From positions 569,252-633,251 of the forward strand of contig NZ_FNCE01000001.1 of assembly GCF_900100655.1 (NCBI RefSeq): a stretch of DNA of 64,000 nucleotides. The letters run 5' to 3'. Positions within the stretch are counted from its first letter, which is position 1; each line of letters opens with the position of its first letter. Of the stretch, positions 3,219 through 18,495 are shown one piece after another. The position numbers and the translations under genes were made by a program. The stretch comes from Limimonas halophila (GTDB taxonomy: Bacteria > Pseudomonadota > Alphaproteobacteria > Kiloniellales > Rhodovibrionaceae). The notes under the pieces were generated by a model. The model saw only the letters and a program-made list of their open reading frames with translations. It made no database searches and was not told where the DNA came from.

Positions 3219-3551
3219 ATGGGAGCGAACACGACGAGAAAGCCGTACCCGGCGGAGCTGCGCGAGCGGGCGGTCCGCATGGTACGCGAGCAGGAGGGAG
3301 AGTACGCCTCGCGATGGGCGGCGCTCACCTCGATCGCCGGGAAGTTCGGGTGCAATCCGGAGACGCTACGTGGCTGGCTGCGCCAAGCTGACCGCGACGA
3401 TGGCGTCGCGACCGGCGTGACGACGGCACAGCGGGACCGCATGCGGGAGCTGGAGCGGGAGAATAAGGAGCTCCGCGGGGCGAACGAGATACTGCGCAAG
3501 GCGTCGGCGTATTTTGCCCAGGCGGAGCTCGACCGCCGATCCAAGTCATGA
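3219..3551 (+). CDS. IS3-family transposase OrfA
   Basis: 110 residues beginning MGANTTRKPYPAELRERAVR, the typical HTH_Tnp_1 start of IS3-family OrfA. The helix-turn-helix (residues ~30-60, with GCNPETLRGWLRQ) is followed by a leucine-zipper-like coiled coil (RMRELERENKELRGANEILR, ~75-95) used for multimerisation. It overlaps orfB by 4 bases, where a -1 programmed frameshift would normally make OrfAB. It appears intact. Confidence 0.85.
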   Translation: MGANTTRKPYPAELRERAVRMVREQEGEYASRWAALTSIAGKFGCNPETLRGWLRQADRDDGVATGVTTAQRDRMRELERENKELRGANEILRKASAYFAQAELDRRSKS

Positions 3552-4174
3552 TCGCGTTCATCGACGATCACCGCGCGGTCTACGGGCTCACACCGATCTG
3601 CTGGCAGCTGGCGATCGCTCCGTCGACCTATCATGCCCACGCGGCCCGGCGGGCCGATCCGTCCACGGCGCCGGCGCGGGTGCGGCGGGACACATGGCTA
3701 CGCGCGGAGATCCGGCGGGTCTGGGAGGAGAACTTCCAAGTCTGCGGCGTGCGCAAGGTCTGGCGGCAGCTGCTGCGCGAGGGCTTCGTGCTCGACGCGC
3801 TGGAGCAGGCGCTCCATGCCCGCCAACCGGTCTCGGGTTAGCAGACCCTCGTTCACCATAGCGATCGCGGCGTTCAATATCTGTCGCTGAAGTACACCGA
3901 ACGCCTCGCGGAGGCAGATATCCAGCCGTCGGTGGGCAGCGTCGGCGACAGCTACGACAACGCCCTCGCGGAAACCGTGATCGGGCTCTACAAGACCGAG
4001 GTGATCCGACGCCGTGGTCCGTGGCGGAGCCTGGAAGCCCTGGAGCTGATGACCCTCGAATGGGTCGATTGGTTCAACCAGCAGCGTCTCCTCGAACCGC
4101 TCGGCCACATCCCACCCGCAGAAGCCGAGGCCGACTTTTTCGAGCGAGACAATCAGGCGGCCATGGCCGCCTGA
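3548..4174 (+). pseudogene. IS3-family transposase OrfB, deleted and interrupted
   Basis: The frame starts MIAFIDDHRAVYGLTPICWQ (N-terminal HTH_21 region). After VWRQLLREG it jumps straight to the VLDALEQALHARQP segment normally found late in the integrase core, so the block with the first catalytic Asp is missing. An in-frame TAG at 3839-3841 then interrupts it. The same frame continues with LVHHSDRGVQYLS and SVGDSYDNALAETVIGLYK, the second Asp and final Glu regions, to a stop at 4174. The lost core and the stop make it non-functional. Confidence 0.85.
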
Positions 4175-5525: not shown

Positions 5526-5570
5526 AGCTGAAGCAGTCCCCGTAGGGGAGGGCGGATCGAAGTCCCTCTC

Positions 5571-5605
5571 CTCCCTTCCTCCCTTCCTCCCTTCCTCCCT
5601 TCCTC
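5571..5605. repeat. Polypyrimidine microsatellite (CTCCCTTC)n
   Basis: Four perfect copies of the octamer CTCCCTTC run from 5571 to 5602, followed by a partial copy. The surrounding 60 bases are also strongly pyrimidine-rich on this strand. Such tracts vary in copy number by slippage. Confidence 0.85.
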
Positions 5606-6613
5606 TGCTCTTCCTCGGAGAGTCCTTCCTGCGAGAGAGCGAGAGAGTGGGAGGAAGGTGAGAGCGGGGCGCGAACTCGGGCTGTCTCGGTGCGACGCTT
5701 GTAAGCTCTCGCGCTTGCTATGGTTTTTCGTGGTCTGCTGAAGCGCGGCTGCAGAAAAAATATATCCTGGGGAGACGGGCTGAGGTGCCTTCGCGGCGGG
5801 TGTCGAGTGGCGCGTGATCAGCGGTCTTATCCTCTGTGGGCTGTCGTGGGGAAGCGACCGGAGCCGGAAGGGAGAACGGCACACACTGGAGCAACAGTGC
5901 CCGTCGCCTTTCGCGGTCCACTGGTTTCTGACAGACCTGTTTTCCGGATGACGTGAGAATATAATTAAGCACTGACTGGATCGAGTCAAATTTCGGCGAT
6001 ATGGGAAGCAGATTTTTTGTTTTTTCGATGATCGCATAATTGCAAGAAGAAGCGAGACCCGTAAAGAGATCGCCCTGCGCTAGACCTTTCCCATTTCCCT
6101 GTAATCGCTGCAGCGTTAAGAATTTCCCATGACTTGTTGACGGGGGTAAGAAGAAGCCAATATCGGGTAAATGCTTGCTTTTACGTTACCGCGCGCCTGC
6201 ATTTACAGGGCGCAAGGCAGGCAAGACTGCACCGCTGCACGGGAACCAGCCTGATGAAAGTAAGGCCCGTTTGGGCGGGCGGCGCCGCACATCGGCGTCG
6301 ACACAGATGCAGCTTGGCTGCACACGCTGAGGGACAGCTGCGGAAAGAGCGGGATCGCCAAGGTGGCTTTGCCGGTGCGCGATGCCTGAGAGAGCCCGTG
6401 TCCGTATATGAAGGACTGCGATCAGATCCGGGACCGCAGCAGCGTGAACGAACGCCGAACATCGATCGTTGGGCAACATGCACAGACGAGCAGGAGCAAG
6501 TCAGCGTCGATAAGTTCGCATGCACCCCGCTAGGGCCGAATGTGAGGTCGGCAGTTCACGCTGAATCGTTCCCTGAGAGGGTGGAAGTCCGGTATTCTTT
6601 CCTGTGCTAGGGG

Positions 6614-6787
6614 GGTCCTGTTCCGCCGCCTCCTGCTCGGGCGTGACGTGCGGGCTGGGCGCGGCGGCGCCGGGCTTGCCCATCAGCGCGTCGATCAGGT
6701 CGCTCCAGCCGTAGGCGCGCAGCACGGCCCGGTCGATCTCGTCGTGGATCTCCTTCGACTTGCCCGCCAGCCTGGGATCGTAGGCGT
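6614..6787 (-). pseudogene. C-terminal remnant of a DNA methyltransferase/restriction enzyme
   Basis: The reverse strand reads YDPRLAGKSKEIHDEIDRAV followed by LRAYGWSDLIDALMGK. The DxAVxxAYGW pattern is typical of the C-terminus of type IIG/MmeI-like or related class I DNA methyltransferase-restriction proteins. The frame is closed by TGA immediately upstream (about 6788-6790), and similarity ends near 6614, so only about 58 codons survive. It marks a lost restriction-modification gene beside the CRISPR-Cas locus. The exact family is uncertain. Confidence 0.55.
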
Positions 6788-6895
6788 CTCAGGGGCGGCG
6801 GCAAAAATTGGTATGGGACGCAGGTTGGTGCTCAGCCCCCCCTTTCTCCTCCGAAGTGGGCGATATTTTCGTTTAAGTTAGGGGAAAGATTTGTC

Positions 6896-6924
6896 TTGAA
6901 GATTGGTGATTTGCTTGTCAGAAT
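6896..6924 (+). promoter_or_regulatory. Putative promoter of the mini-CRISPR RNA
   Basis: TTGAAG (6896-6901) and CAGAAT (6919-6924) are separated by 17 bp, each with four of six consensus bases. Transcription would start near 6931, a few bases before the first degenerate repeat. The surrounding ~100 bp are AT-rich compared with the rest of the locus. The match to consensus is only moderate. Confidence 0.4.
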
Positions 6925-6935
6925 CATCATTATAA

Positions 6936-7011
6936 AGATTCCACTGCATAAGTGGCTGAGAAGATAGTCAGGGTTTCCTGTAGATGAGCCGCCGGATAGG
7001 CGGCGCCTTGG
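6936..7011 (+). ncRNA. CreR-like mini-CRISPR (two degenerate I-F repeats and one short pseudo-spacer)
   Basis: Pseudo-repeat 1 (6936-6963) has stem-loop CCACT-GCATA-AGTGG followed by CTGAGAAG, identical to the 8-nt crRNA 5' handle of the two large arrays. Pseudo-spacer 6964-6983 is ATAGTCAGGGTTTCCTGTAG, 20 nt against the usual 32. Pseudo-repeat 2 (6984-7011) keeps TGAGCCGCC, a 5-nt loop and GGCGGC, but its 3' end has diverged. Cas6f cleavage after each stem would give a ~48-nt RNA with handle, spacer and 3' hairpin. The pseudo-spacer partly matches a PAM-flanked site at 7046-7065 just upstream of csy1. This is the layout of CreR-type Cas-autoregulating guide RNAs. Transcription and processing are inferred. 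Confidence 0.75.
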
Positions 7012-7033
7012 CTGGCGGGGCCAGCCAAGGCGC
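7003..7033 (+). terminator. Strong 14-bp hairpin directly after the mini-CRISPR
   Basis: GCGCCTTGGCTGGC (7003-7016) pairs perfectly with GCCAGCCAAGGCGC (7020-7033) around a GGG loop. It starts on the last stem base of pseudo-repeat 2. There is no T-run after it (CGTTGCAACG follows), so it is not a textbook intrinsic terminator. It could end or protect the short RNA, or separate its transcription from the csy operon. Confidence 0.55.
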
Positions 7034-7043
7034 GTTGCAACGC

Positions 7044-7065
7044 CCATAGTAAGGGTTTTATGAAT
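7044..7065 (+). promoter_or_regulatory. Predicted Cascade target site (PAM + partial protospacer) upstream of csy1
   Basis: CC (7044-7045), the type I-F PAM, precedes ATAGTAAGGGTTTTATGAAT (7046-7065). Compared with the pseudo-spacer, positions 1-5, 7-13, 16, 17 and 19 match (15 of 20). The single mismatch within the first 13 is at position 6, which type I Cascade does not pair. Distal mismatches would favour binding without Cas2/3 cleavage. The site ends 2 bp before a -35-like TTGACT, so bound Cascade could block RNA polymerase. Confidence 0.7.
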
Positions 7066-7067
7066 AC

Positions 7068-7096
7068 TTGACTCAGCCCGATGCATTGGCATCCTT
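7068..7096 (+). promoter_or_regulatory. Putative csy operon promoter
   Basis: TTGACT at 7068-7073 is a good -35 element. At 17 bp spacing the -10 position reads ATCCTT, a poor match, so the exact promoter is uncertain. It lies about 200 bp before csy1 and immediately after the predicted Cascade target. Confidence 0.35.
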
Positions 7097-7277
7097 GAAC
7101 CAGATCACGGTCAGCAACCGTGCAGCGCACCGAACAGGTGGCGGCCGGCATGGTCATAGCTAAAAAACTGCAGCAGCACAGCAGCAACCACGGAGGGTTG
7201 TCGCGCTTTCGAGTGCAAGCTGAAAAATACACCCGGAGCCGGCCTGTGAACACCGGGTCTGCAACCTTTCCTCCTTC

Positions 7278-8759
7278 ATGACGGGTCGCGAAGCACACAT
7301 GCGTTTTGATCCTGAATCCTTCCCGAGTGATGTCGCCAAAATGGCGAGTGGGAATCCCGATCGTCCGGCCGCTGAGGGAACTGCGTTGAAGCGAGCGCTG
7401 GACACGGTTTTTGCCGTTCGTGTGGCGGAAGAACCGTTCACTGTTTCCGACGGTCATGCAGGGGCGTTCATGACCATTCTTCTGAATGCCCATGACACGA
7501 AGGCACGGACAGGAGAGCGCCAGCAGCGCAAAATCGACAGCTTTGAGAGCCTGCAAAGCCGTAACGAAGCCAAAGCGCGCGCCGAGCGGGTCACGGCGGA
7601 TCGTCTCTCGGGCATTATCGCCGAAATCGGCAGCTACCTTCCCAGCGTGCTGGACCCGAGCGTCGCCAAGGTGCCCCCGAAGGTCGGCAGCAAGATGCCG
7701 GTGGCCCTCGGCGGACACGCAAAATCCGGCGTCAGTCCGATTTACGCGACGGCTGCGACGACCCACGCCCGCGTTCCGCTCTCCTATGCCGGCAGCGCGG
7801 CGTATCTCCCGCTCGCCAAGCTGTTGTGCACCCGCGTCACGGATGAGCGAGGCGAGACTGCGATGCTGATCGAGCGCATCGCGAACGGCGACGTGTTTGC
7901 GAATGCGCTGGCGGAACTCGGGGTTCCGGCTGATGCACTCGCGACCGCGGGCGAGATGTACCGCCGCAAGCGCGACCACGGGCTGTCCGACGTCTCCGCG
8001 ATCGACGGCGATCACATGAAGGCGATGTTCGTGCCGGACGGCGCGGGCGGGTACGTTCAGGTCACGCCCGTCCCGTCGGCGGCGATCTATACAGAATTGC
8101 CGCAGCGCATGCGCGAGCGTCAGCAGCGCGGTTCCGACGGCTCCGCGACGGCGTTCGTGCCGCGCACGGCCGTTGTCACCTCAGCAAAGCCGCAAAACGT
8201 TGGGCTTCACGTTCAGTACCAAGGCGGCCAGCTGACTCGCATTCGAGCGAGCTATTATCCAATCGAGCACGCTGGCATACAGCGGCGCATCACGACTTGG
8301 AAGAACGGCGCCCCGCTCTTCTACGCCGGCTTGCTGCGCGGAAGTCACGCCGTCCAGCGTTTTGCGCGGCTTGAACGCGATCCGGACCCGAGCGCGCCCG
8401 GCCACGGGTATTCGACACATGAGATCCGGTCCGCGCTTGATCGCTACGCCGGGGACATGGCGCTCACGCTGGCCAAGTACCTGCGCGATGTCCGCGATGA
8501 ATGCGCTGCTGATCCGGGCAGTCTGGGCGACAAGGCGGAGTACGCGTGTAGCCCGGCCGTTCGCGACCTCGTGCTCTTCCAGGACCGCGCGGCCACGGAC
8601 GACGACCGTGAGGCCCTCATACAAGAAGCCCTCCAAGCCGTCTTGCGCGCCCTCATGCGCGTCGATCCCGCGCTCTTCCGAACGCGCGCCCACGACGAGC
8701 GTGTGCGCGATCGCTTGACCCGCCGCCTGAAAGCCGCGCTGGAGCCCGAACTCCCATGA
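7278..8759 (+). CDS. csy1: Type I-F Cascade large subunit Csy1 (Cas8f)
   Basis: 493 residues (Pseudomonas Csy1 is about 434). Csy1 forms the tail of the I-F Cascade with Csy2 and recognises the PAM. The conserved KPQN motif occurs near residue 304 (TSAKPQNVGLHVQ), as in TKPQN of the Pseudomonas protein. The rest is divergent but helical, and the position in front of csy2-csy3-cas6f supports the call. Start ATG 7278 or ATG 7299 (MRFDPESF); neither has a good ribosome binding site. It overlaps csy2 by 4 bp (ATGA), indicating translational coupling. Confidence 0.88.
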   Translation: MTGREAHMRFDPESFPSDVAKMASGNPDRPAAEGTALKRALDTVFAVRVAEEPFTVSDGHAGAFMTILLNAHDTKARTGERQQRKIDSFESLQSRNEAKARAERVTADRLSGIIAEIGSYLPSVLDPSVAKVPPKVGSKMPVALGGHAKSGVSPIYATAATTHARVPLSYAGSAAYLPLAKLLCTRVTDERGETAMLIERIANGDVFANALAELGVPADALATAGEMYRRKRDHGLSDVSAIDGDHMKAMFVPDGAGGYVQVTPVPSAAIYTELPQRMRERQQRGSDGSATAFVPRTAVVTSAKPQNVGLHVQYQGGQLTRIRASYYPIEHAGIQRRITTWKNGAPLFYAGLLRGSHAVQRFARLERDPDPSAPGHGYSTHEIRSALDRYAGDMALTLAKYLRDVRDECAADPGSLGDKAEYACSPAVRDLVLFQDRAATDDDREALIQEALQAVLRALMRVDPALFRTRAHDERVRDRLTRRLKAALEPELP

Positions 8760-9613
8760 GCATCTTCGCCATCGGCCCGTTCACGGCCGCAGATGCGGCC
8801 CTGGACAGCAGCCCCGTTGTGGCCGGACTTCCGAGCATCACCGCGCTTGCCGGCGTGGCCGACGTCATCGCGCGGGCGGGTGGGCAACCAGCCGCCAACT
8901 TGCCCGTCGCGCTGCTCCTGCACCGCGTGACGCCCCACAGCGGCATGTTCCGCCCCACGCCCCAGCCGAGCGGCGAGCCCGCGGAGGCGCCTGGGCGCCT
9001 GTTCGGTCAGGTGCGCGCAACGATTTGCCTCGCCGATCCAGCGGACACGCTGTTCTCCGACACCGTGCGCCGCGCAGTCCAGCGGGCGCGGTTCGCGGGC
9101 GCGCGGATGGAAGGCGACGATGCACCCGTCCCGCCGGTTCGAGCATGTGACGATCTCGGCGAAGCGCTGAGAAGCGTGCCGCCCGGCCATCTTTTGGCCG
9201 ACCGGACCGACATTCTGGAAGATGCCACCACCCATGCGGCCGATCCGCTCGATGCGTTGCTGGACGTGGCCACGCTACACCGCGACGAGGACGGCCGTTG
9301 GACCAACCCCTACAGCGAGCCCGAGCCCGGAGTGCGCCACCGGCTGACACCGCTCTCGGTTGGCTTCCAGGCCCTGGAGCCGATCGAGAACGCGAGCGGC
9401 CGGGAAGGCACGCGTGAGCCCGAAACCCCGCACGTCTTCGCCGAGGGCGTCGCAACGGTCGCGGAGTTCGTTTCCGCCCGTGCGCTCGCCCGGGCGCCAA
9501 GCATCAGCCACGCCGTCTTGTGGTCGTGGCACATCGACCGTCCGACCGGTCTTTTCGTTGTCCGCGGTCGCACGCCGGCCGCTGTTGAAGCCGAACTGGA
9601 GGAGCAACTGTGA
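8756..9613 (+). CDS. csy2: Type I-F Cascade subunit Csy2 (Cas5f)
   Basis: 285 residues. Csy2 pairs with Csy1 at the crRNA 5' end. Visible family features are GLPSITALAGVADVI near residue 24 (compare GFPAPTAFLGF in known Csy2) and LSVGFQALEPIENASG followed by PHVFAEGVATVAEFVSARAL in the C-terminal half, matching the VGYQALSP...F-E segment of the family. It overlaps csy1 by 4 bp and csy3 by 4 bp, so the three are surely co-transcribed. Confidence 0.88.
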   Translation: MSIFAIGPFTAADAALDSSPVVAGLPSITALAGVADVIARAGGQPAANLPVALLLHRVTPHSGMFRPTPQPSGEPAEAPGRLFGQVRATICLADPADTLFSDTVRRAVQRARFAGARMEGDDAPVPPVRACDDLGEALRSVPPGHLLADRTDILEDATTHAADPLDALLDVATLHRDEDGRWTNPYSEPEPGVRHRLTPLSVGFQALEPIENASGREGTREPETPHVFAEGVATVAEFVSARALARAPSISHAVLWSWHIDRPTGLFVVRGRTPAAVEAELEEQL

Positions 9614-10728
9614 CCACCGTTCCCACGCTGCACGCAAACCTCTTGTCCTATGCGCGTTCGGTTCAGCCGGGCGAAGGGCTGTTCTTCGGCGTCACCGCGG
9701 GCGAACCGCTGCTGACCGAGGAAGAACAACTCAACCGCAGCGCCCTCATCCCCGCCGAGGTCGAAGAAGTCTCGGTGCGCGGACAGATCAGCAACTACGT
9801 CAGCGATCCCGACAACACCGAGTTCAACATCAGCGAGCCGAACCTGCAGACGATCGACCAAGCCAAGCTTCCGGCCAGTGCTGACCGATTGGTGGTCAAG
9901 ACCAGCGTCCAGTTCCTGCCCAACAGCACTGCGCCCCACGCCTGCGACAACAAGACCGTCGCCGACAATCTGCAGGAGCTGGCGCGCAAATACCGCGATG
10001 TGGGCGGCTACACCTTCCTCGCCAAGCGCTACCTGTGGAACGTGCTGAACGCGCGGTGGCTGTGGCGCAACTTCCTGATTATGACCGACAAGAAGGTGCA
10101 CGTTCTGGAAGACGGCGTCCGGGTGCTGACGGCCGATCCAGCGCAGCTGGAGCGTGACCACTATCCCGGCGACGATACGCTGGAAGAGGCGGCTCCGGGG
10201 GCCGGCGCCTTGGCCGAACGCATGGGCCGCGCCTTGTACGACCCAGAGGCCGTCCTTTCCCTGGAACTGGTGGGCGAGGGCGCGCTGCCCGAGGGCTCCG
10301 AGATCTTCCCGAGTCAGGAATACCTGGGCGGCGAAGCAGAAGAGCGGGTGCGCCGCCGGCGTGGCAACAAGAATGCTGGCAAGGTGCTGTCCGCCATCCC
10401 CGTCCAGCACGGCAACCGCACGGTTCGCCAAGCCACCTTCCACCCGCAAAAGATCGGCAACGCCATCCGCTGCGTAGACGAATGGCACGGCTCAACGGAG
10501 ATTGAGTGTGCCATGCCGGCGGACCCCTACGCCGCGCTGACCACGCGCGCCGTCGCGCTGCGCCCGCCCAACGGCGGCTCGTTCTACGACTTCATCACCC
10601 GGCAGAACCGGCGCAAGGAACTTTACGCAGCGCTGGACAAGGAGGACCCGGCCGATCCCGATTGCGGCAACGTGCACTTCGTTTTCGCGTGCTTGTCGCG
10701 CGGCGGCGTGTTCGGCGGCAAGGAGTAG
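9610..10728 (+). CDS. csy3: Type I-F Cascade backbone Csy3 (Cas7f)
   Basis: 372 residues from GTG 9610. Csy3 forms the six-fold backbone along the crRNA spacer. Recognisable blocks are VRGQISNYV, SEPNLQTIDQAKLPASADRL, ARKYRDVGGYTFLAKRYLWN, NARWLWRNFLI, EIFPSQEYL, KIGNAIRCVDEWH and the terminal RGGVFGGKE, all in the order seen in Pseudomonas Csy3 (342 residues). It overlaps csy2 by 4 bp and precedes cas6f by 7 bp. Confidence 0.93.
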   Translation: MTTVPTLHANLLSYARSVQPGEGLFFGVTAGEPLLTEEEQLNRSALIPAEVEEVSVRGQISNYVSDPDNTEFNISEPNLQTIDQAKLPASADRLVVKTSVQFLPNSTAPHACDNKTVADNLQELARKYRDVGGYTFLAKRYLWNVLNARWLWRNFLIMTDKKVHVLEDGVRVLTADPAQLERDHYPGDDTLEEAAPGAGALAERMGRALYDPEAVLSLELVGEGALPEGSEIFPSQEYLGGEAEERVRRRRGNKNAGKVLSAIPVQHGNRTVRQATFHPQKIGNAIRCVDEWHGSTEIECAMPADPYAALTTRAVALRPPNGGSFYDFITRQNRRKELYAALDKEDPADPDCGNVHFVFACLSRGGVFGGKE

Positions 10729-10735
10729 GGGCGCG

Positions 10736-11467
10736 ATGGAGCATTATCTGGAGTTCCGCTACAGCCGCGACGCCACCACCCTCGTCGAGCCCAACAATCC
10801 TCTGTTGGCCCGCAACGTCGTGCATGCCGTGCACTGCCACAACCTCGGCGTGGCGTCGGGTGCGGAGCGGCTGGCCGTGGCGCTGCCGGGGCTGGCGCAC
10901 GTCACGTGGCGCAAGGATGGCCGGCCGGCGGACCTCGCCGCGTGTCTCGGGCACGTTCGCGTCTTCGGCAGTCCGGACGCGCTTGCCGCGTTCACCGAGC
11001 GCGCGGAAGTCGATCGGCTGGTTCAGGCGGGCATGATCCGCACGCCACGCGTGCGCGAGGTCGAGCCGGAGGCCGTGCTCGGCTACGCTGTCTACCGGCG
11101 CGAACGCCGGCACGAGGCGACGACCGACGCGGCGATCCTGCGCACGGAAGCACGCTACCAGCGCCGGGCCGAAGCGCGTGGGGAGACGCGCGACAGCATC
11201 GCCATGATCCGCAAGCGCCGGCGCGACGCCGGGGCGTTGGCCCGCGGCAAACGCCGGGAAGCGCCCCCGGTCTATCTGGCGATGCAGTCCGGCTCCACGG
11301 GGCAGCGGTTTTCGCTGTCCATCGCGCGGCGGGAGGTCACGGCGCCGGACGACGCTTCGGCTGTGCCGGACGTCTATGGCCTTGCCCGCGTGGGCGATGG
11401 GACCAATGGCGCACGTTCGCCCGTCGTCGTGCCGGAGTTCGATCCGCGCGGCCCCGGGGTTCGGTGA
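10736..11467 (+). CDS. cas6f: Type I-F crRNA endoribonuclease Cas6f (Csy4)
   Basis: 243 residues (Pseudomonas Csy4 is 187). It cuts pre-crRNA at the 3' base of the repeat hairpin and stays bound to it. It starts MEHYLEFR (compare MDHYLDIR). His30 in NVVHAVHCHN is the likely catalytic His equivalent to His29. QSGSTGQRFSLSI (residues 184-196) matches the family's QSTGQHFRLFI, and YGLAR precedes the C-terminus. The extra length lies in the arginine-rich helix region (~120-175) and in the C-terminal tail. It ends exactly at the first base of the leader of array 1. Confidence 0.93.
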   Translation: MEHYLEFRYSRDATTLVEPNNPLLARNVVHAVHCHNLGVASGAERLAVALPGLAHVTWRKDGRPADLAACLGHVRVFGSPDALAAFTERAEVDRLVQAGMIRTPRVREVEPEAVLGYAVYRRERRHEATTDAAILRTEARYQRRAEARGETRDSIAMIRKRRRDAGALARGKRREAPPVYLAMQSGSTGQRFSLSIARREVTAPDDASAVPDVYGLARVGDGTNGARSPVVVPEFDPRGPGVR

Positions 11468-11592
11468 ACCTTCGTGGCTGCGGTGCTCTTGGAAAAGTGG
11501 GGCTGATCAGGAGGATGGGCTGGGTCGGCCGGGGACGAAGGGTAACCCCGGCCGTGCGGCCCATGTCCCCGGCATGCGGGCATGATTTTGCC
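11468..11592 (+). promoter_or_regulatory. CRISPR leader 1
   Basis: 125 bp from the cas6f stop codon to the first repeat. It aligns along its whole length with 17441-17564 in front of array 2: both begin ACCTTCGT, share GCTCTTGGAAAA and GGATGGGCT, and their last 37 bases (from TGCGGCCCATGTCC to ATGATTTTGC) differ at a single position. Strong conservation next to the first repeat is expected for adaptation sequences. It should also hold the array promoter, though I cannot point to one. Confidence 0.85.
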
Positions 11593-13002
11593 GTGAGCCG
11601 CCGCGTAGGCGGCTGAGAAGCTTCCTGGCAGCGTCACTACCGCGGCTGAGCATGTGAGCCGCCGCGTAGGCGGCTGAGAAGCGAGACGCTTCACTTCGTC
11701 GACCCGCCGTACCGTGAGCCGCCGCGTAGGCGGCTGAGAAGTGCGGAACGCCGGTCTGCGCCGACACGGCGGCGTGAGCCGCCGCGTAGGCGGCTGAGAA
11801 GTATGCGCCGTGACGCATCAGCTCGGTCCTGGCGTGAGCCGCCGCGTAGGCGGCTGAGAAGAATCGCCGTACAGCTCGTCGTAGAGCGCGCACGTGAGCC
11901 GCCGCGTAGGCGGCTGAGAAGACCACGTCGAAGCGATCCGCGGCCGCCACCTCGTGAGCCGCCGCGTAGGCGGCTGAGAAGTCGCCCGCGCCGTGGACCG
12001 GCCGCTGCTGGCTGTGAGCCGCCGCGTAGGCGGCTGAGAAGTTCTCCGGTGGTGACGCTGTCAACGAGAACGTGTGAGCCGCCGCGTAGGCGGCTGAGAA
12101 GCTCTCTACACAAGCTCGCAGCGAAGCGGCCAAGTGAGCCGCCGCGTAGGCGGCTGAGAAGATTCCGCCGCCGCAAGCGGGATCACGTCGCCCGTGAGCC
12201 GCCGCGTAGGCGGCTGAGAAGTTCGGCCGCCTGATTGCGCACGCGTGCCAGCGTGTGAGCCGCCGCGTAGGCGGCTGAGAAGCACGGCGGGTCCGCGAGA
12301 ACACAACGGAACCCGTGAGCCGCCGCGTAGGCGGCTGAGAAGTCCAGCGCGAGCATCGTGAACAGCCGCTCGGCGTGAGCCGCCGCGTAGGCGGCTGAGA
12401 AGTACGACAGTGCAAATAATGTCCTAGACTGTCCGTGAGCCGCCGCGTAGGCGGCTGAGAAGAGCACCCGCGCCACGTCGTCCGGGCGCATGCTGTGAGC
12501 CGCCGCGTAGGCGGCTGAGAAGCCTGGCGCGTACCCGCGATGGTTATATAGTGAGTGAGCCGCCGCGTAGGCGGCTGAGAAGTTGCTCTTGCCTGCCAGC
12601 CGGGCCGCCTCGTCGTGAGCCGCCGCGTAGGCGGCTGAGAAGTCGATCATCGCATCCACGTCGGGATTGGCCGCCTGAGCCGCCGCGTAGGCGGCTGAGA
12701 AGATCTCGCGATGCGTCGCTGAGCGGACGACGCGGTGAGCCGCCGCGTAGGCGGCTGAGAAGTGGGAAAGGCCTCGTGCTGCTGGCGGATGATCGTGAGC
12801 CGCCGCGTAGGCGGCTGAGAAGAGCGAGCGCGTGGTGCAGGCCGGGGCAGCGCCGTGAGCCGCCGCGTAGGCGGCTGAGAAGTTTTTGCCAAGGTCCAGA
12901 TCGAACCGCGTTTTGTGAGCCGCCGCGTAGGCGGCTGAGAAGTACATCGAGCGCCTCGTCGTCGCGCTGACGGAGTGAGCCGCCGAGTAGGCGGCTGGGA
13001 AA
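11593..13002 (+). CRISPR. Type I-F CRISPR array 1 (24 repeats, 23 spacers)
   Basis: The 28-bp repeat starts GTGAGCCGCCGCGTAGGCGG and ends CTGAGAAG, the I-F type, with hairpin GCCGCC-GCGTA-GGCGGC. Repeats start at 11593, 11654, then every 60 bp to 12194, 12255, then every 60 bp to 12975. Spacers are 32 bp except the first and eleventh (33). The repeat at 12675 has C at position 1. The last repeat (12975-13002) is degenerate (GAGTA loop, CTGGGAAA end), which marks the leader-distal end and sets the transcription direction as plus. Spacers are otherwise unique. Confidence 0.99.
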
Positions 13003-13045
13003 ACAGCGGGGCGTTTCAGACCATTCTTGGGATCAATGACGTGCG

Positions 13046-13073
13046 GTAACCCGCCGTGCAGGCGGAAGCGTTG
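13046..13073 (+). repeat. Further degenerate I-F repeat upstream of cas1
   Basis: Aligned with the array repeat, 19 of 28 bases match, including a complete hairpin CCGCC-GTGCA-GGCGG (13051-13065). It starts 43 bp after the last degenerate repeat of array 1 and 53 bp before the likely cas1 start. It may be a decayed end of the array or part of a regulatory element. The 5' handle sequence is not conserved. Confidence 0.45.
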
Positions 13074-13125
13074 GCGCATGTCCGGGTTGCATCGCCGCCC
13101 TGTCTCCGGTTGCCTCGACCGCATC

Positions 13126-14064
13126 ATGGCGATGACCCGCTTGCTCCATACGGATCGGCAGAGCGCGCTCCTGCTGGAGCGGGCACACGTTCGCGTGGAT
13201 GACGAGCGCGTCGTGTGCGACACAGTAGACGAAACGGTCGAGCGCACGTTCAACGTTCCCCACGCCAACCTGGCGTTCCTGCTGCTGGGGCAGGGCACCT
13301 CGCTCACCCAGCCAGCCGCGCGGCAACTCGCCGACGAGGGCGTGGTCGTGGGCTTCACGGGCACGGGCGGGGCGCCGTTGTTGATGGCGTCCTACGCGAT
13401 CTACCGCCCGACCGACCGCCTGCACCGTTGGATCGCCGTTCAGCCCAGGGAAGACGCCCGCTTGGCTGCCGCGCGTGAAATCCAGGACCGGCGCGTTGCC
13501 AGCCTGGAAAACATCCCGGAACGCGTCTCCAGGGTCTTCGAAACCGAAGCAATCGCCGACGTGCTGGCGAAGTATCGCCGCAACGTGGGCAACGCGGGCG
13601 ATGTCGACACGCTCATGGGGCAGGAGGGGCGCTTCTGCAAGGATCTCTATAAGCACGTCGCCGGCGAGATCTTCGGCATTCCCCGCTTCAAGCGCGATCC
13701 GGGCGGACGCGCCGGCGAGCGGCAGCCCGACGAACGCGCGCGCTTGCTGAACGAATTCATCGACCAGGGCAACTACCTCGCCTACGGGCTCGCCGCAGTG
13801 GGCCTCTGGGCCCACGGCATTCCGGCCGGCCTGTCGGCGCTACACGGGCAGTCGCGCGCAGGCGGGCTGGTCTTCGATGTGGCCGATACCTTCAAGGATG
13901 CGTTCGTCCTGCCCGTCGCGGGCGAGGTGGCGCGCAAAGGGCCGAAAGACGGACGGGAACAGGAGTTCCGCGCCCGCCTCATTGACGCCTTCGACGAGCA
14001 GCGCGCCATGAAGCACGTCTTCACCAACATCGACCGCATGATCGAGGCCGGCGAATGCGCGTGA
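13126..14064 (+). CDS. cas1: CRISPR integrase Cas1 (type I-F)
   Basis: 312 residues from ATG 13126 (ATG 13132 is equally possible); the frame is open from TTG 13027, but that extension has no family similarity. Cas1 joins new spacers to the leader end of the array together with the Cas2 domain of Cas2/3. Recognisable I-F Cas1 blocks are NVPHANLAFLLLGQGTSLTQ, GVVVGFTGTGGAPL, YRPTDRLHRWIA, MGQEGRFCKDLYK (catalytic Glu) and LSALHGQSRAGGLVFDVADT (metal-binding His and Asp). It overlaps cas2/3 by 10 bp. Its position behind array 1, not ahead of csy1, is unusual for I-F. Confidence 0.93.
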   Translation: MAMTRLLHTDRQSALLLERAHVRVDDERVVCDTVDETVERTFNVPHANLAFLLLGQGTSLTQPAARQLADEGVVVGFTGTGGAPLLMASYAIYRPTDRLHRWIAVQPREDARLAAAREIQDRRVASLENIPERVSRVFETEAIADVLAKYRRNVGNAGDVDTLMGQEGRFCKDLYKHVAGEIFGIPRFKRDPGGRAGERQPDERARLLNEFIDQGNYLAYGLAAVGLWAHGIPAGLSALHGQSRAGGLVFDVADTFKDAFVLPVAGEVARKGPKDGREQEFRARLIDAFDEQRAMKHVFTNIDRMIEAGECA

Positions 14065-17000
14065 CCTTCGTGGACGAGTCCGTTCGCGACGCGCGCCGGC
14101 GCGTTGAACGCGTCCTCGACCGCTACCTCCCGCGCGTCGCCCAGGCGACCTGGACCGGCTTTCTCTCCAACGAGGCCCTGCGCACCGTGGCCGGCGCGTT
14201 GCGAGCCCGCGCCAGCCGGAACACGGCCGTGGCCTGCTTCGTGTCGGGCCGCAACAACGGCGCACCGGTCTTCCACATCGGCTCGCGCCATCGCTTCGGC
14301 CGGCGCGGGCAGTACGCCATCAACGTGCGCCAGCGCCGCAAGCCCAGCCGTACCGCCATGCCCGGATTCCGCCAGCTCAAGGCGTGCCTGGAGATGGCCG
14401 CGCTGCTGCACGACGTCGGCAAATCGGCGCATCAGTTTCAGCGCGCCTTGCGCAAAACTGGCGAAAACACCGGGGCCGTGCGTCACGAGCTGATCTCGAC
14501 GCTCTTCCTGATCGAGATGAGCCGCGCGTTCGATGACGGCGACGCCCTCTGGCGCGGACTGGCCGGCGGGCCGGACGCGGCCACGCTGGAGGCGGCGTAC
14601 GATCGCGCTGCCGCTCGGGCGGCGCGGCTTTCGCCCGGCGACCCCCTTCCCGAGCTGCATTGGGATGGCAGCCGGCCGGCGGTCTCGGCGGTGGTGCTGC
14701 TGATCGCCGTTCACCACCGCCTGCTCGAAGCCGAGCTGACAAGCAACGCTGTCTCTTTCCACACGCGAGCGCATGTTCGCAGCGATGCTTCCCCGGGGCC
14801 TCACCGCGCCCGTGAAGCCGCCCATGCCAATGCGTCCAGCGTTTTTCGCGACGACCGCTTCCAGCGTCGTCTCCAGCGCGCCGCGACCGAGCTGCGCGAT
14901 GCCTTCGCAGCGCCGACAGCGCTCACGCCCGACACGGCCTACGCGTACGGCCGGCTGTGTCTGATGCTGGGCGACCAGGACGCCTCGGCGCGCGGCCAGC
15001 AGCGGGTGAGCGACGACGACGGCGGGCTCTTCGCCAACACCTCCTCGGCGCCCGAGCGGCCGGGCGCGCTCGCCGAGCCGTTGATCGACCACCTCAAGGC
15101 CGTTGCCCATCGCACGCGCGCCCATGCGCTCATGCTCCAGCGCTCGCAGCACGCCTTTCCCCGTGTGACGCCGGACGCGCTGCCAGAGGCGCTCACGGAA
15201 CCGCCGTGCGCCGGCCGCTTCGCCTGGCAGGGAGATGCCGTGGAGCGCTTGCGCGGCCACGAGGCCCGTGGGGCCGGCTTTTTCGGCGTGGCGATCGTGC
15301 CGACCGGAGGCGGCAAGACCCGTGGCGCCCCCGCTGCCTTGCACGCGGCCACGGGGCGCTGCCGGTTCGTGCTCGGGTTGGGGCTGCGCTCCCTGACGCT
15401 TCAGTCCGGCACGGCCTATACGGGCGAAGTCGGCTTCGCGTCCGCCGACGTTGCCACCATCATCGGCGATGAAACGGCGCGTCGGCTGCATGACCTCGAC
15501 CGGACGGGTGGCGGCGATCGCGCCGGCACCAACGCCGAGGCGCCAGCCGTTGACGATCTGGTCGTGGCCGGTGGGGCAGGGCGCGCGGCTGCGCTGGACG
15601 ATGCCGACGACCGCGAGCTCGACGACGCCGAACTGGCCGAACTCGGCGGCGATCCGGGAGGTGATCCGGACCGCGCGCTGCCGCGCACCGTGGAAACGGC
15701 GCTCCAGGGTGCGTGGGGCCGGGAGCGCGCGGATCGCCTGCTGCGCACGCCGGTCGTGGCCGCCACCGTGGACCAGCTCATGGCCGCCGCCGATGCGCGC
15801 AGCAGCCGGTACCTCCACGCCATGCTGCGCCTCGCCACCAGCGACCTGATCCTGGATGAGATCGACGCTTACGATGCCGTCGACGATGCCGCGATCCTGC
15901 GGCTGGTGTATCTGGCCGGGGTGTTCGGCCGCGCGGTGGTGCTGGCCTCGGCGACCACGCCGCCGGAGATCGCCCGCGCCTTCCACCGCGCCTATGCCGC
16001 CGGCTACAGCGCGCATGCCGCGTTGACGGGCGGGGCCGATCATGTGCTGACGGCCTGGCTCACCGACGATCCGGCCCTCACGACCGTCGAGGCGGTGGAG
16101 CCGGAGCGGTTTGGCGAGCGCCACCGCGCGATTACCGAGCGCTTCGTGCAGCAGCATCAGCAAGCGCCGGCGAGGCGCTTCGCCGAGATCGTCACGCCGG
16201 ACGAGCCCGGTGAAACTGCGGCGTTCGACGCCATGATCGCTGCCGCCCGGCGCATGCACCACCGGCACGCGCAGGTGATCGACGATGGGGTGCGCGTTTC
16301 CGTCGGCGTCGTGCGTGTGGCGAACGTGCGCACCTGCCGCGATCTGGCGCGTCACCTCGCGCGCTCAGGGGTGCCCGACACCATTGTGGGCGTGGCGTGC
16401 TATCACGCCCGGCTGCTCGGCCTCGTGCGCTTCCACACAGAGCGCATGCTTGACGAAATGCTGGTTCGGAAGGGCCCGAACGGCGCGACAGCCCCGGCCC
16501 GGCATCCCCGCGTGCAGGCGCTGATCGACACTGCGAAGGCGCGTGGCGTGGGCGAGGTGATGGTCCTGGTGGTCGCCACGCCGGTCGAGGAAACGGGCCG
16601 CGACCACGACTTCGATTATGCCGTGCTCGAACCCTCGTCCACGCGCTCGATCATCCAGCTCGCCGGGCGCGTGGGACGCCACCGCGACGTGGTGCCGGAC
16701 GCGCCGAACATCGCGATCCTGCAGACGCCGATGTCGTACGCCCGTGGCGACCAGTCGCCTCATTACCAACGGCCGGGTGTCGAAACGCCGTTCCGCGAGG
16801 GCGTGAAGGGCGCGACGCCTGCGAAACTGAGCAGCGCGAAGATCGACGAGCTGATCGACGTCCAAGCGCTTCGCACGCGCATCGACGGGCGGTTCTGGCT
16901 GCTCGATCCCTGGGACGGCGTCGGCGAGCTTCCGCAAGCCGAACATCGGCTCCTGCGAAGCTTTCTGGAAACCGGTTCGTTCAGGGCGGCGCGCTTCGCC

Positions 17001-17393
17001 ACCGACCCGGACCTGCCGTTCAGCGCCTGGATGCCGCGCCATCAGCCCTTCCGGCTTTCTGACGTCGAAACCGCCTTCTTCCTCGATCTGGAACCGGGCG
17101 CGGAGCGAGCGTGGCGCGTGGTGTCGGACGACGACGCCAAAGCGCCACCGCACACGAATGTGGTCGAGGACGCCGAAACGCCATTCGCCGAGGCCGTGTG
17201 GCCGCTCCTCGATCTGGACCTGGATCGTGCCTTCTCGGCCATGCAGCGCACCTTTCCGGGGGAGGCGCGCACCACCGTCTGCCGGAAGCTGCTCGCGTTC
17301 ACGGCCCCAGGCGATCTGGTCGGTCAGCGCCCGGCTTCGGCGCGGATCGAACACGAGGTTCTTTTTGGCGCGGATCGCGTTCGAGGCGCGTAG
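14055..17393 (+). CDS. cas3: Cas2/3 fusion nuclease-helicase (type I-F)
   Basis: 1112 residues, the usual size for I-F Cas2/3. The N-terminal ~85 residues (RRRVERVLDRYLPRVAQATW, RNTAVACFVSGRN) match the fused Cas2 domain. The HD nuclease follows with ALLHDVGKSAHQFQ (His119-Asp120). The superfamily 2 helicase has VPTGGGKT near residue 414 and DEID near 600, followed by SATTPPEIARAF and a C-terminal helicase motif QLAGRVGRH. It degrades DNA after Cascade binding and joins Cas1 in spacer acquisition. All signature motifs look intact. Confidence 0.95.
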   Translation: MRVTFVDESVRDARRRVERVLDRYLPRVAQATWTGFLSNEALRTVAGALRARASRNTAVACFVSGRNNGAPVFHIGSRHRFGRRGQYAINVRQRRKPSRTAMPGFRQLKACLEMAALLHDVGKSAHQFQRALRKTGENTGAVRHELISTLFLIEMSRAFDDGDALWRGLAGGPDAATLEAAYDRAAARAARLSPGDPLPELHWDGSRPAVSAVVLLIAVHHRLLEAELTSNAVSFHTRAHVRSDASPGPHRAREAAHANASSVFRDDRFQRRLQRAATELRDAFAAPTALTPDTAYAYGRLCLMLGDQDASARGQQRVSDDDGGLFANTSSAPERPGALAEPLIDHLKAVAHRTRAHALMLQRSQHAFPRVTPDALPEALTEPPCAGRFAWQGDAVERLRGHEARGAGFFGVAIVPTGGGKTRGAPAALHAATGRCRFVLGLGLRSLTLQSGTAYTGEVGFASADVATIIGDETARRLHDLDRTGGGDRAGTNAEAPAVDDLVVAGGAGRAAALDDADDRELDDAELAELGGDPGGDPDRALPRTVETALQGAWGRERADRLLRTPVVAATVDQLMAAADARSSRYLHAMLRLATSDLILDEIDAYDAVDDAAILRLVYLAGVFGRAVVLASATTPPEIARAFHRAYAAGYSAHAALTGGADHVLTAWLTDDPALTTVEAVEPERFGERHRAITERFVQQHQQAPARRFAEIVTPDEPGETAAFDAMIAAARRMHHRHAQVIDDGVRVSVGVVRVANVRTCRDLARHLARSGVPDTIVGVACYHARLLGLVRFHTERMLDEMLVRKGPNGATAPARHPRVQALIDTAKARGVGEVMVLVVATPVEETGRDHDFDYAVLEPSSTRSIIQLAGRVGRHRDVVPDAPNIAILQTPMSYARGDQSPHYQRPGVETPFREGVKGATPAKLSSAKIDELIDVQALRTRIDGRFWLLDPWDGVGELPQAEHRLLRSFLETGSFRAARFATDPDLPFSAWMPRHQPFRLSDVETAFFLDLEPGAERAWRVVSDDDAKAPPHTNVVEDAETPFAEAVWPLLDLDLDRAFSAMQRTFPGEARTTVCRKLLAFTAPGDLVGQRPASARIEHEVLFGADRVRGA

Positions 17394-17440
17394 AGGTTCG
17401 TTTCTGCCACCGCCGGTGGGCTTCGGGGTTGGGATCGTGT

Positions 17441-17564
17441 ACCTTCGTCGCGCGAGCGCTCTTGGAAAATTCGGATCGATCAGGGGGATGGGCTAGCCCC
17501 GCCGGAATCGAAAGGTTGCCCTGGCTATGCGGCCCATGTCCCCGGCATACGGGCATGATTTTGC
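17441..17564 (+). promoter_or_regulatory. CRISPR leader 2
   Basis: 124 bp homologous to leader 1 (11468-11592), starting ACCTTCGTCGCGCGAGCGCT and ending ATGATTTTGC directly before the first repeat of array 2. The middle has diverged more than the repeat-proximal 37 bp, where only one base differs. It starts 47 bp after the cas2/3 stop. Confidence 0.85.
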
Positions 17565-18495
17565 GTGAGCCGCCGCGTAGGCGGCTGAGAAGCTCACCGG
17601 ACTGTCGCCACTTCCGCAGCGTGTGTGAGCCGCCGCGTAGGCGGCTGAGAAGACAACCCGACCATTTGAACCGGCCGCGCGAGCGTGAGCCGCCGCGTAG
17701 GCGGCTGAGAAGTTCGATGCGGCACACCGTGTCGGTCGGCACACGTGAGCCGCCGCGTAGGCGGCTGAGAAGAACGCGCCGGCCAAGACGGCCCGGCAGC
17801 GCAAGTGAGCCGCCGCGTAGGCGGCTGAGAAGCGGGCGTCCGCGCGGTCGGCGATGCGGGTGCGCGTGAGCCGCCGCGTAGGCGGCTGAGAAGATCCGCA
17901 TCCTGCGCGAGCGCTACGGCACGGAGTGAGCCGCCGCGTAGGCGGCTGAGAAGAAGCTCGGGTGGTAACCACTATGGACGTTGGTGTGAGCCGCCGCGTA
18001 GGCGGCTGAGAAGTCCGCGCCGGATAAGCATGCCCGAGAGCCGCAGTGAGCCGCCGCGTAGGCGGCTGAGAAGTCGGCCACAAGAGCCTGAGCATGGTCC
18101 AGCGCGTGAGCCGCCGCGTAGGCGGCTGAGAAGCACGGAGAGCAGGGCGCACCGAACATCGTCCTTCGTGAGCCGCCGCGTAGGCGGCTGAGAAGCGTGT
18201 CGCTCGCCGTCGCCGGCTGGTGCGCGGGTGAGCCGCCGCGTAGGCGGCTGAGAAGGACGGAAGAGCGCTGGCACGAGCGACTATGGCGTGAGCCGCCGCG
18301 TAGGCGGCTGAGAAGCACTCCCACACGTCCCAAGATTTCCCATATCCGTGAGCCGCCGCGTAGGCGGCTGAGAAGTTCATCATCCCGATCGGCAGGTAAC
18401 ACACCGCGTGAGCCGCCGCGTAGGTGGCTGAGAAGTAGCTGGTGAGCGTCCAGGGAAACGCCACGGCGTGAGCCGCCGCGTAGGCGGCTCGGCCC
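17565..18495 (+). CRISPR. Type I-F CRISPR array 2 (16 repeats, 15 spacers)
   Basis: Same 28-bp repeat and orientation as array 1. Repeats start at 17565, 17625, 17685, 17745, 17805, 17866, 17926, 17986, 18046, 18106, 18168, 18228, 18288, 18348, 18408 and 18468. Spacers are 32 bp except one of 33 (before 17866) and one of 34 (before 18168). The repeat at 18408 has GGTGGC in the stem, and the final repeat at 18468 loses its 3' end (CTCGGCCC in place of CTGAGAAG). The shared repeat and leader show that both arrays use the same Cas proteins. Confidence 0.99.

What the first reader, a model, noticed from the sequence alone, without database searches (positions are those of the whole stretch)
6936..7066. 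CreR-like mini-CRISPR that may guide Cascade to repress its own csy operon
Seen: two degenerate I-F repeats flank a 20-nt pseudo-spacer upstream of csy1. The site 7046-7065 matches 12 of its first 13 bases and is preceded by CC. The one seed mismatch is at position 6. Forty of the 4^13 possible 13-mers fit within one mismatch, about 6e-7 per position, so chance over a few hundred bases is small, and the PAM makes it smaller. Known: I-F uses a CC PAM, type I guides do not pair every sixth base, and short partial matches bind without cutting; CreR RNAs in other type I systems repress cas genes this way. Inference: Cascade loaded with this RNA blocks the csy promoter, so anti-CRISPRs or low Cascade would raise expression.
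Basis: partly seen in the sequence, partly recalled or inferred. Interest (0 to 1): 0.92.

Follow-up and report, generated by a model that had tools for sequence, protein, structure and literature searches.

The report
CRISPR-derived guide near cas gene promoter
A tiny two-repeat CRISPR unit just before the cas genes probably makes a guide RNA that brings the bacterium's own CRISPR complex to a site ahead of them, most likely to hold down its own production; this is a further example of a known kind of switch.

Summary
Two degenerate I-F repeats (6936-6963, 6984-7011) flank a 20-nt pseudo-spacer that matches a CC-flanked site, 7046-7065, in 12 of its first 13 bases (mismatch at 6). It is the genome's only exact match to CC plus that seed. 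Repeat 1 keeps a compensated hairpin and the exact handle; repeat 2 keeps only its hairpin.

Among 106 I-F loci (csy1 located in 104), 24, window included, carry such an element upstream of csy1; a looser scan adds nine. All 24 have their own CC-flanked target. Positions 6 and 12, left out of the score, match in 6/24 and 5/24; positions 1-5 in 23-24/24: the pattern expected of Cascade pairing.

What is repressed is less certain. In 12 loci the target lies 8-111 nt from the longest csy1 ORF, with little room for a toxin; 13 others carry a creT-like motif. The window's 213-nt gap has no clear creT, terminator or coding signal, and its best, though not significant, promoter candidates lie at the target. 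I favour csy autorepression (CreR-like) over CreTA. Both kinds are in print: new member of a known kind.

The parts
6896..6936 (+). AT-rich stretch upstream of the mini-CRISPR; probable promoter of the guide RNA (several weak -35/-10 candidates, e.g. TTGAAG-17-CAGAAT, or a -10 TATAAA at 6931)
   Evidence: GC 0.34-0.40 in 6850-6974 against 0.68-0.86 in 6600-6799; promoter scan not above shuffles; inferred
6936..6963 (+). psiR1, degenerate I-F repeat: Cas6f-type hairpin CCACT-GCATA-AGTGG (6941-6955) and intact 8-nt 5' handle CTGAGAAG (6956-6963)
6964..6983 (+). psiS, 20-nt pseudo-spacer (guide)
6984..7011 (+). psiR2, degenerate I-F repeat: hairpin CCGCC-GGATA-GGCGG kept, 3' handle lost
7005..7031 (+). 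12-bp hairpin with a 3-base loop directly after psiR2; possible end of the guide transcript (no T run)
   Evidence: fold; role inferred
7044..7065 (+). CC PAM (7044-7045) and protospacer-like target (7046-7065)
7068..7095 (+). best promoter candidate between element and csy1: TTGACT-16-CATCCT; the -35 begins 2 nt after the target. The next two candidates (TTGCAA at 7035) straddle the target's PAM side
   Evidence: score 8.2, 95th percentile of shuffles 8.3, so not significant; AT dip 7025-7099; one search finds no promoter-like site by its stricter rule
7299..8759 (+). csy1/cas8f (divergent); start at 7299 by alignment with Rhodovibrio sodomensis Csy1, longest ORF from 7278
8756..11467 (+). 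csy2 (8756-9613), csy3 (9610-10728), cas6f (10736-11467)
11593..13002 (+). CRISPR array 1 (24 repeats; the last degenerate)
13027..17393 (+). cas1f (13027-14064) and cas3f with Cas2 domain (14055-17393)
17565..18435 (+). CRISPR array 2, same repeat (15 repeats; 14 by the pattern and a last one with one changed base)

Best explanation
The element encodes a crRNA-like regulatory RNA (CreR-like). It is transcribed rightwards from about 6940 and cut by Cas6f after both hairpins into a roughly 48-nt RNA (8-nt handle, 20-nt guide, 20-nt hairpin). It loads into the Csy complex (Cas8f-Cas5f-Cas7f-Cas6f), which binds the CC-flanked site at 7046-7065 through positions 1-5 and 7-13. The match is too short and too broken for stable Cas3 recruitment, so the complex acts as a roadblock on the promoter next to the target, which reads into csy1. 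Csy complex would thus hold down its own operon, and be released when ordinary crRNAs compete for it or anti-CRISPRs remove it. Shown here: the anatomy, the guide-target match, the PAM, and the same pairing rule across I-F loci. Inferred: transcription, processing, binding, that the promoter at the target is the csy promoter, and the regulatory response.
For: Repeat features kept are those needed to process a single guide: both hairpins and the psiR1 handle, not the psiR2 handle. Only exact CC-seed match in the genome. 24 of 24 structurally detected elements upstream of csy1 have a CC target near by; 23 of 24 best PAM-blind matches are preceded by CC; the unscored positions 6 and 12 match in 6/24 and 5/24, and in 3/9 and 3/9 of the loci found without requiring hairpins. 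0 of 552 cross-locus pairs reach 13/15, 20 of 24 own pairs do. In 12 loci the target lies 8-111 nt from the longest csy1 ORF with no creT-like motif. In the window the 213 nt between target and csy1 show no terminator-like site, only a 6-bp hairpin, no unusual RNA fold (z +1.26) and no coding signal in the 43-aa ORF, and the three best promoter candidates abut or straddle the target.
Against: No RNA or expression data. In the Acinetobacter system single mutations at guide positions 13-17 abolished function (PMC10097628); the window's guide does not pair at 14 and 15, so its repression may be weak (this bears equally on CreTA). The window's 213-nt gap (234 nt to the start at 7299) is longer than in the 12 short loci and within the range of the creT-bearing ones (177-272 nt). 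A borderline creT-like hairpin, GATGC-ATTG-GCATC with ATG in its stem, lies at 7080-7093 (score 5.9, shuffle 95th percentile 5.5), though without a Shine-Dalgarno sequence. The promoter candidate does not beat shuffled sequence and one search finds none. The nearest relative with this system, R. sodomensis, lacks the element (83 nt between cas3 and csy1; no match above chance). 22 of the 24 strict elements run divergently to csy1; the window's and L063's run with it.
Confidence: 0.6

Rival explanations
1. CreTA: the guide is an antitoxin (CreA) that lets the Csy complex repress a small toxic RNA or peptide encoded between the target and csy1, making the cell dependent on its CRISPR system.
For: Published for I-F in Acinetobacter with a 20-nt pseudo-spacer, CC PAM, unpaired position 6 and the same slot before csy1. 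Thirteen other loci here carry a creT-like unit: Shine-Dalgarno, start codon in a hairpin, about 10 codons. The window gap is long enough, holds a borderline AUG-in-stem hairpin at 7080-7093, an 11-codon ORF from GTG 7246 with a weak GGAG, and a 43-aa ORF (7150-7281) with an SD-like AGGTGG whose stop overlaps the longest-ORF csy1 start.
Against: No clear creT match: 5.9, while 12 of 14 positives score 12.3-35.5 in leave-one-out (the other two, L030 and L008, score below zero, so the profile misses divergent members). No Shine-Dalgarno near 7081. 12 of 14 creT loci (L137 and L030 excepted) have a hairpin over the script's threshold in this region; the window's equals the weakest of these (10), and the 12 short loci have none. 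The 43-aa ORF has codon usage nearer to out-of-frame sequence.
Confidence: 0.27
2. Both at once: one Cascade-blocked promoter yields a leader transcript with its own activity that also runs into csy1, so loss of Cascade raises both.
For: No terminator-like site found between target and csy1, so any transcript started at the target should reach csy1.
Against: The region has no match in 60 other genomes of the order and no unusual structure.
Confidence: 0.08
3. A decayed CRISPR remnant with a chance match nearby.
For: The repeats are degenerate and the nearest relative lacks the element.
Against: 1 of 4000 shuffles and 0 of 4000 random guides match as well; compensated hairpin pairs and handle kept; the same architecture in 23 other loci by the strict scan.
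Confidence: 0.03
4. A one-spacer array against an outside element with an incidental self match.
For: It is built of repeats and a spacer-like unit.
Against: 20 nt instead of the 32-34 nt of the 36 array spacers listed, handle lost on repeat 2, target 62 nt from the guide.
Confidence: 0.02

Closest known systems
CreR, cas-regulating crRNA-like RNAs of type I-B, I-E and V-A (Liu et al. 2023, Cell Host Microbe; not held; title seen in reference lists; described in reviews PMC13131331 and PMC12737573, passages seen)
   Same: Mini-CRISPR-type guide RNA that binds the effector and recognises the promoter region of its cas operon by partial match
   Different: Type I-F (divergent, alphaproteobacterial) rather than I-B, I-E or V-A; promoter and repression not shown here
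I-F1 mini-array regulatory guides targeting cas8 promoters (Shmakov et al. 2023, NAR, gkad495; not held; reference seen; content recalled from memory only)
   Same: Recalled: two repeat-like units around a short spacer with partial match near cas8, one I-F1 case tested experimentally
   Different: Could not check whether this locus or its clade is listed; most elements found here run divergently to csy1, this one runs with it
I-F CreTA of Acinetobacter (PMC10097628; abstract and section list, Results parts 1-2 of 4, Discussion)
   Same: 20-nt pseudo-spacer, 8-nt handle, 20-nt 3' handle, CC PAM, unpaired position 6, psiR2 closer to the repeat than psiR1, located before csy1
   Different: No recognisable creT in the window; element parallel to csy1; cas3 not upstream; positions 14-15 unpaired
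Archaeal CreTA (PMC9458426, passages seen; subtype I-B is recalled)
   Same: Degenerate ectopic repeats, psiR1 more diverged than psiR2, guide represses through Cascade
   Different: Another subtype; a toxin RNA is present

Membership tests
CreR-type cas-regulating RNA | Two repeat-like units with a processing hairpin and 5' handle around a short pseudo-spacer, outside the arrays | tested here: met
CreR-type cas-regulating RNA | Limited match of the guide to a PAM-flanked site near the cas operon | tested here: met
CreR-type cas-regulating RNA | The site overlaps or abuts the promoter of the cas operon | tested here: inconclusive
   top candidates and the AT dip lie at the target but do not exceed shuffles; one search finds no promoter-like site
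CreR-type cas-regulating RNA | Guide RNA made and bound by the effector; cas expression rises when it is lost | not testable with these tools
   needs small-RNA sequencing and reporter assays
I-F CreTA | crRNA-like antitoxin with PAM-flanked partial target | tested here: met
I-F CreTA | creT between target and csy1: strong Shine-Dalgarno, start codon in a stem, mini-ORF | tested here: inconclusive
   only a weak GGAG unit at 7235-7281; best profile hit borderline and without Shine-Dalgarno; the profile scores two divergent members (L030, L008) below zero
I-F CreTA | Toxicity when Cascade is lost | not testable with these tools
   needs a growth assay
Ordinary CRISPR array unit | Full-length repeats and a spacer of about 32 nt | tested here: not met
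   18/28 and 19/28 identity, 20-nt spacer
Type I-F CRISPR-Cas | cas8f, cas5f, cas7f, cas6f, cas1f and a Cas2-Cas3 fusion | tested here: met
   Csy2, Cas6f and Cas3f are below their NCBIfam I-F cut-offs, Cas8f is found only by PADLOC profiles (3.7e-6) and 36% identity to the R. sodomensis protein

The most novel reading that the evidence does not exclude
The region before csy1 in type I-F loci is a general output port of the Csy complex. The same guide-and-target architecture, with unrelated guide sequences, is wired in some loci to the csy operon itself and in others to a toxin RNA, a ParE toxin or a small membrane peptide. In this genome, in a divergent alphaproteobacterial I-F branch, it arose separately, in the parallel orientation, and is wired to csy.
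Probability: 0.35. Interest if true: 0.6.

Novelty: new member of a known kind. Interest (0 to 1): 0.42.

Why it matters
It adds a divergent alphaproteobacterial I-F system to those in which the interference complex appears to regulate its own locus with a CRISPR-derived guide. The comparison shows the pairing rule directly from natural sequences: 33 of the 104 loci with csy1 located carry such an element, and guide positions 6 and 12 look free to vary. It also splits the elements by distance to csy1 into a likely self-regulating group and a group with a creT-like motif, which makes CreR versus CreTA testable locus by locus.

Tried and rejected
Relatives: Csy3 in IMG/VR gave no confirmed relative. 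PF09615 was found in 1 of 61 genomes of the order, the window's own. Csy1 was found in 1 of 385 genomes drawn from the class, its own, and not in plasmids. DNA 6850-7300 has no match in plasmids or in the other 60 genomes of the order. Conservation within the clade could therefore not be tested.

Rfam on 6700-7400 gave only a sub-threshold ilvH match, taken as chance. The terminator scan marks the psiR1 hairpin on the minus strand; 1 found against 0.6 in shuffles, taken as chance. A MAFFT alignment of creT units slipped around the start codon, so an anchored profile was used; no covariance model was built. Rows scoring 11 or more that I did not count: L026 (12; by eye no hairpin), L009, L062 and L066 (11; reached by 1-2 of 20 shuffles), L029 (14; its best target lies inside its own psiR1). 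L019 (p 0.01) was not counted because its element lies over 2 kb from csy1. The reverse-strand reading of the L017 element (p 0.98) was dropped as the same element. L070 and L136 were left out because csy1 was not located; two more loci did not pass the length or N filter of the looser scan (102 examined). L119 is the one locus whose PAM-blind best match is not its CC site, and 1 of 20 shuffles reaches its score. Distances to csy1 use the longest ORF, so the real gap can be larger (L069's 8 nt in particular). No search was made for protospacers of the two arrays, so CC as this system's own PAM rests on the element and on other I-F loci. Handle pattern and promoter weights in the scripts were recalled from memory.

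Full report
What is there. Reading the window and comparing with the array repeat confirms the finding at its coordinates. psiR1 (6936-6963) keeps a five-pair hairpin with a five-base loop, in which two pairs differ from the array repeat with both partners changed, and keeps the whole 8-nt handle. psiR2 (6984-7011) keeps its hairpin and loses the handle. If Cas6f cuts after each hairpin, as in I-F (established knowledge, and seen for Acinetobacter CreA in PMC10097628), the product is an 8 + 20 + 20 nt RNA. The predicted fold of 6936-7036 shows both hairpins and a further 12-bp hairpin right after psiR2; none of 200 shuffles folds as well (z -4.08). A genome-wide pattern search finds this handle-bearing hairpin here and in the two arrays only (40 places: psiR1, 24 repeats of array 1, 15 of array 2).

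The match. The guide matches 7046-7065 in 12 of its first 13 bases and 15 of 20, with CC before it. Over the +-700-nt flanks, 1 of 4000 shuffled and 0 of 4000 random guides score as high; none has as long a run. The genome holds one exact match to CC + ATAGT-N-AGGGT-N-T, this site; the other 12 listed places have two mismatches, one of them being the pseudo-spacer itself, and the backwards control has 12 places.

The neighbourhood. Downstream lie csy1, csy2, csy3, cas6f, array 1, cas1f, cas2-3f and array 2. Csy1 is so diverged that NCBIfam and Pfam miss it; PADLOC Cas8f profiles find it (3.7e-6), and it is 36% identical to the Csy1 of Rhodovibrio sodomensis, whose start corresponds to 7299. 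Csy3 of that species is 54% identical to the window's; the other 79 loci of that list are at 34% or less in their best segment. R. sodomensis has 83 nt between cas3 and csy1 and no element found.

The comparison. I oriented 106 I-F loci: the window, five of the 34 plasmid records with a Csy3 match, the 80 best of at least 582 in the genome collection, chosen by Csy3 similarity, and 20 of the 27 other hits in a phylum sample of 398 genomes. csy1 was located in 104. A scan by structure alone (two hairpins, one handle, outside arrays) found 24 loci with an element within 1 kb upstream of csy1. Each of these has a CC-preceded match to its own guide within 700 nt (shuffle p 0.0025-0.025, 20 at the floor of 0.0025). 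The score ignored positions 6 and 12. Matches by position, of 24: 24, 23, 24, 24, 24, then 6, then 24, 21, 23, 21, 23, then 5, then 23, 17, 19, 18, 17, and 7-11 at positions 18-22. Without requiring a PAM, the best match is preceded by CC in 23 of 24. Guides do not match other loci: 0 of 552 cross pairs reach 13 of 15 (3 reach 12), against 20 of 24 own pairs. A second scan required only a handle and a CC match, in the 600 nt before csy1. It gave a score of 13 or more in 26 of 102 loci and in 0 of 2040 shuffled regions. It adds nine loci that I count (L058, L081, L008, L043, L046, L078, and with scores of 11-12 L069, L024, L126), all of which show by eye a hairpin before the handle. The total is 33 of 104. 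The loci were chosen by Csy3 similarity, so this is not a population frequency.

What is repressed. The 33 loci fall into three groups. In 12 the target lies 8-111 nt before the longest csy1 ORF, with no creT-like motif and no hairpin over the threshold, so csy1 is the natural object of repression. Thirteen, with 177-272 nt, carry a unit like the published Acinetobacter creT: Shine-Dalgarno, start codon in a stem, a mini-ORF of about 10 codons. An anchored profile finds the start codon in 13 of 14 (the 13 and the Acinetobacter control L137) when that member is left out, but two members (L030, L008) score below zero. Eight are unresolved or hold something else: the window, L025, L078, L125, L126, L129, L018 (a ParE gene, PF05016, 2.4e-15) and L063. 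TTG follows the PAM within one base in 14 of 27 minus-strand targets, a count that includes L137, which the script did not test; the background is 62 of 1295 GG sites in these regions. So about half of these targets abut a -35-like TTG.

The window itself. Between target and csy1 there are 213 nt (234 to the start at 7299). The best -35/-10 pair is TTGACT-16-CATCCT, two bases past the target; the next two overlap the target. None beats shuffled sequence (8.2 against a 95th percentile of 8.3). There is a dip in GC at 7025-7099. No terminator-like site, only a 6-bp hairpin, no unusual fold. The 43-aa ORF 7150-7281 has codon usage of -0.27 per codon, against 0.67 for the cas genes (5th percentile 0.25) and -0.74 out of frame (95th percentile -0.33), that is, low for a gene and slightly above the out-of-frame range. 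The best creT-like hit, at 7081, is borderline and has no Shine-Dalgarno. Unlike the tested Acinetobacter guide, in which bases 13-17 are all needed, this guide does not pair at 14 and 15, so repression may be weak. Together this favours csy autorepression, about 0.6, with CreTA the main rival at about 0.27; the unpaired bases bear on both alike and do not change these odds.

Known and new. I-F CreTA is published (PMC10097628; parts read). CreR is described for I-B, I-E and V-A in a review passage and for type I and V-A in another; the primary paper is not held. From memory only, Shmakov et al. 2023 report mini-arrays with partial match near cas8 promoters and test one from I-F1; that paper is not held. 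My literature searches listed no paper that I recognised as reporting an I-F CreR; I read titles and abstract beginnings of the listed papers, and the library holds only open-licence papers, so this is no claim of absence from print. I therefore file the window as a new member of a known kind. Its less usual features are the divergent alphaproteobacterial I-F host system, the csy-first gene order, and an element parallel to csy1.

Noticed in passing
L018 (Thiothrix caldifontis) 6782-7538: A mini-CRISPR (7088-7169, minus strand) sits between a ribbon-helix-helix, ParD-like ORF (6782-7048; PF12651 6.3e-5) and a ParE toxin gene (7254-7538; PF05016 2.4e-15), with its CC target (7219-7240) just before parE and upstream of csy1: a possible Cascade-regulated ParE.
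   Followed up: partly
L058, L008, L030, L035, L037, L053, L056, L067, L074, L086, L087, L118, L119: A creT-like unit (Shine-Dalgarno, start codon in a hairpin, about 10 codons, several reading MxGxHxVRR) between target and csy1 in 13 loci outside the Acinetobacter control. The Acinetobacter paper mentions a dozen homologs.
   Followed up: partly
L125 5519-5683, L126 5540-5695: Small peptides with a hydrophobic stretch (54 and 51 aa, no Pfam match) between target and csy1, candidate membrane toxins.
   Followed up: no
L129, between target and csy1 (re-oriented coordinates 5548-5739): A 63-aa ORF that overlaps the csy1 start, with no Pfam match above cut-off.
   Followed up: no
window 3219-4174: Transposase pieces in three open frames (HTH_Tnp_1, HTH_21, rve_3), probably an IS3-type element, with an Rfam ALIL pseudoknot (3506-3622) at the junction of the first two.
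   Followed up: partly
window 7278-18435: csy1-csy2-csy3-cas6f, array, cas1, cas3, array: the csy genes come before cas1-cas3, as also in L004, L005 and L007, unlike cas3-csy1 in L009.
   Followed up: no
window 7150-7281: 43-aa ORF with an SD-like AGGTGG whose stop overlaps the longest-ORF csy1 start (ATGA); codon usage does not look coding.
   Followed up: yes
L035 and L077: Two loci (Modicisalibacter, uncultured Halomonas) with nearly the same pseudo-spacer; in L077 the element is about 1 kb from csy1 and no significant target was found within 700 nt (p 1.0).
   Followed up: no
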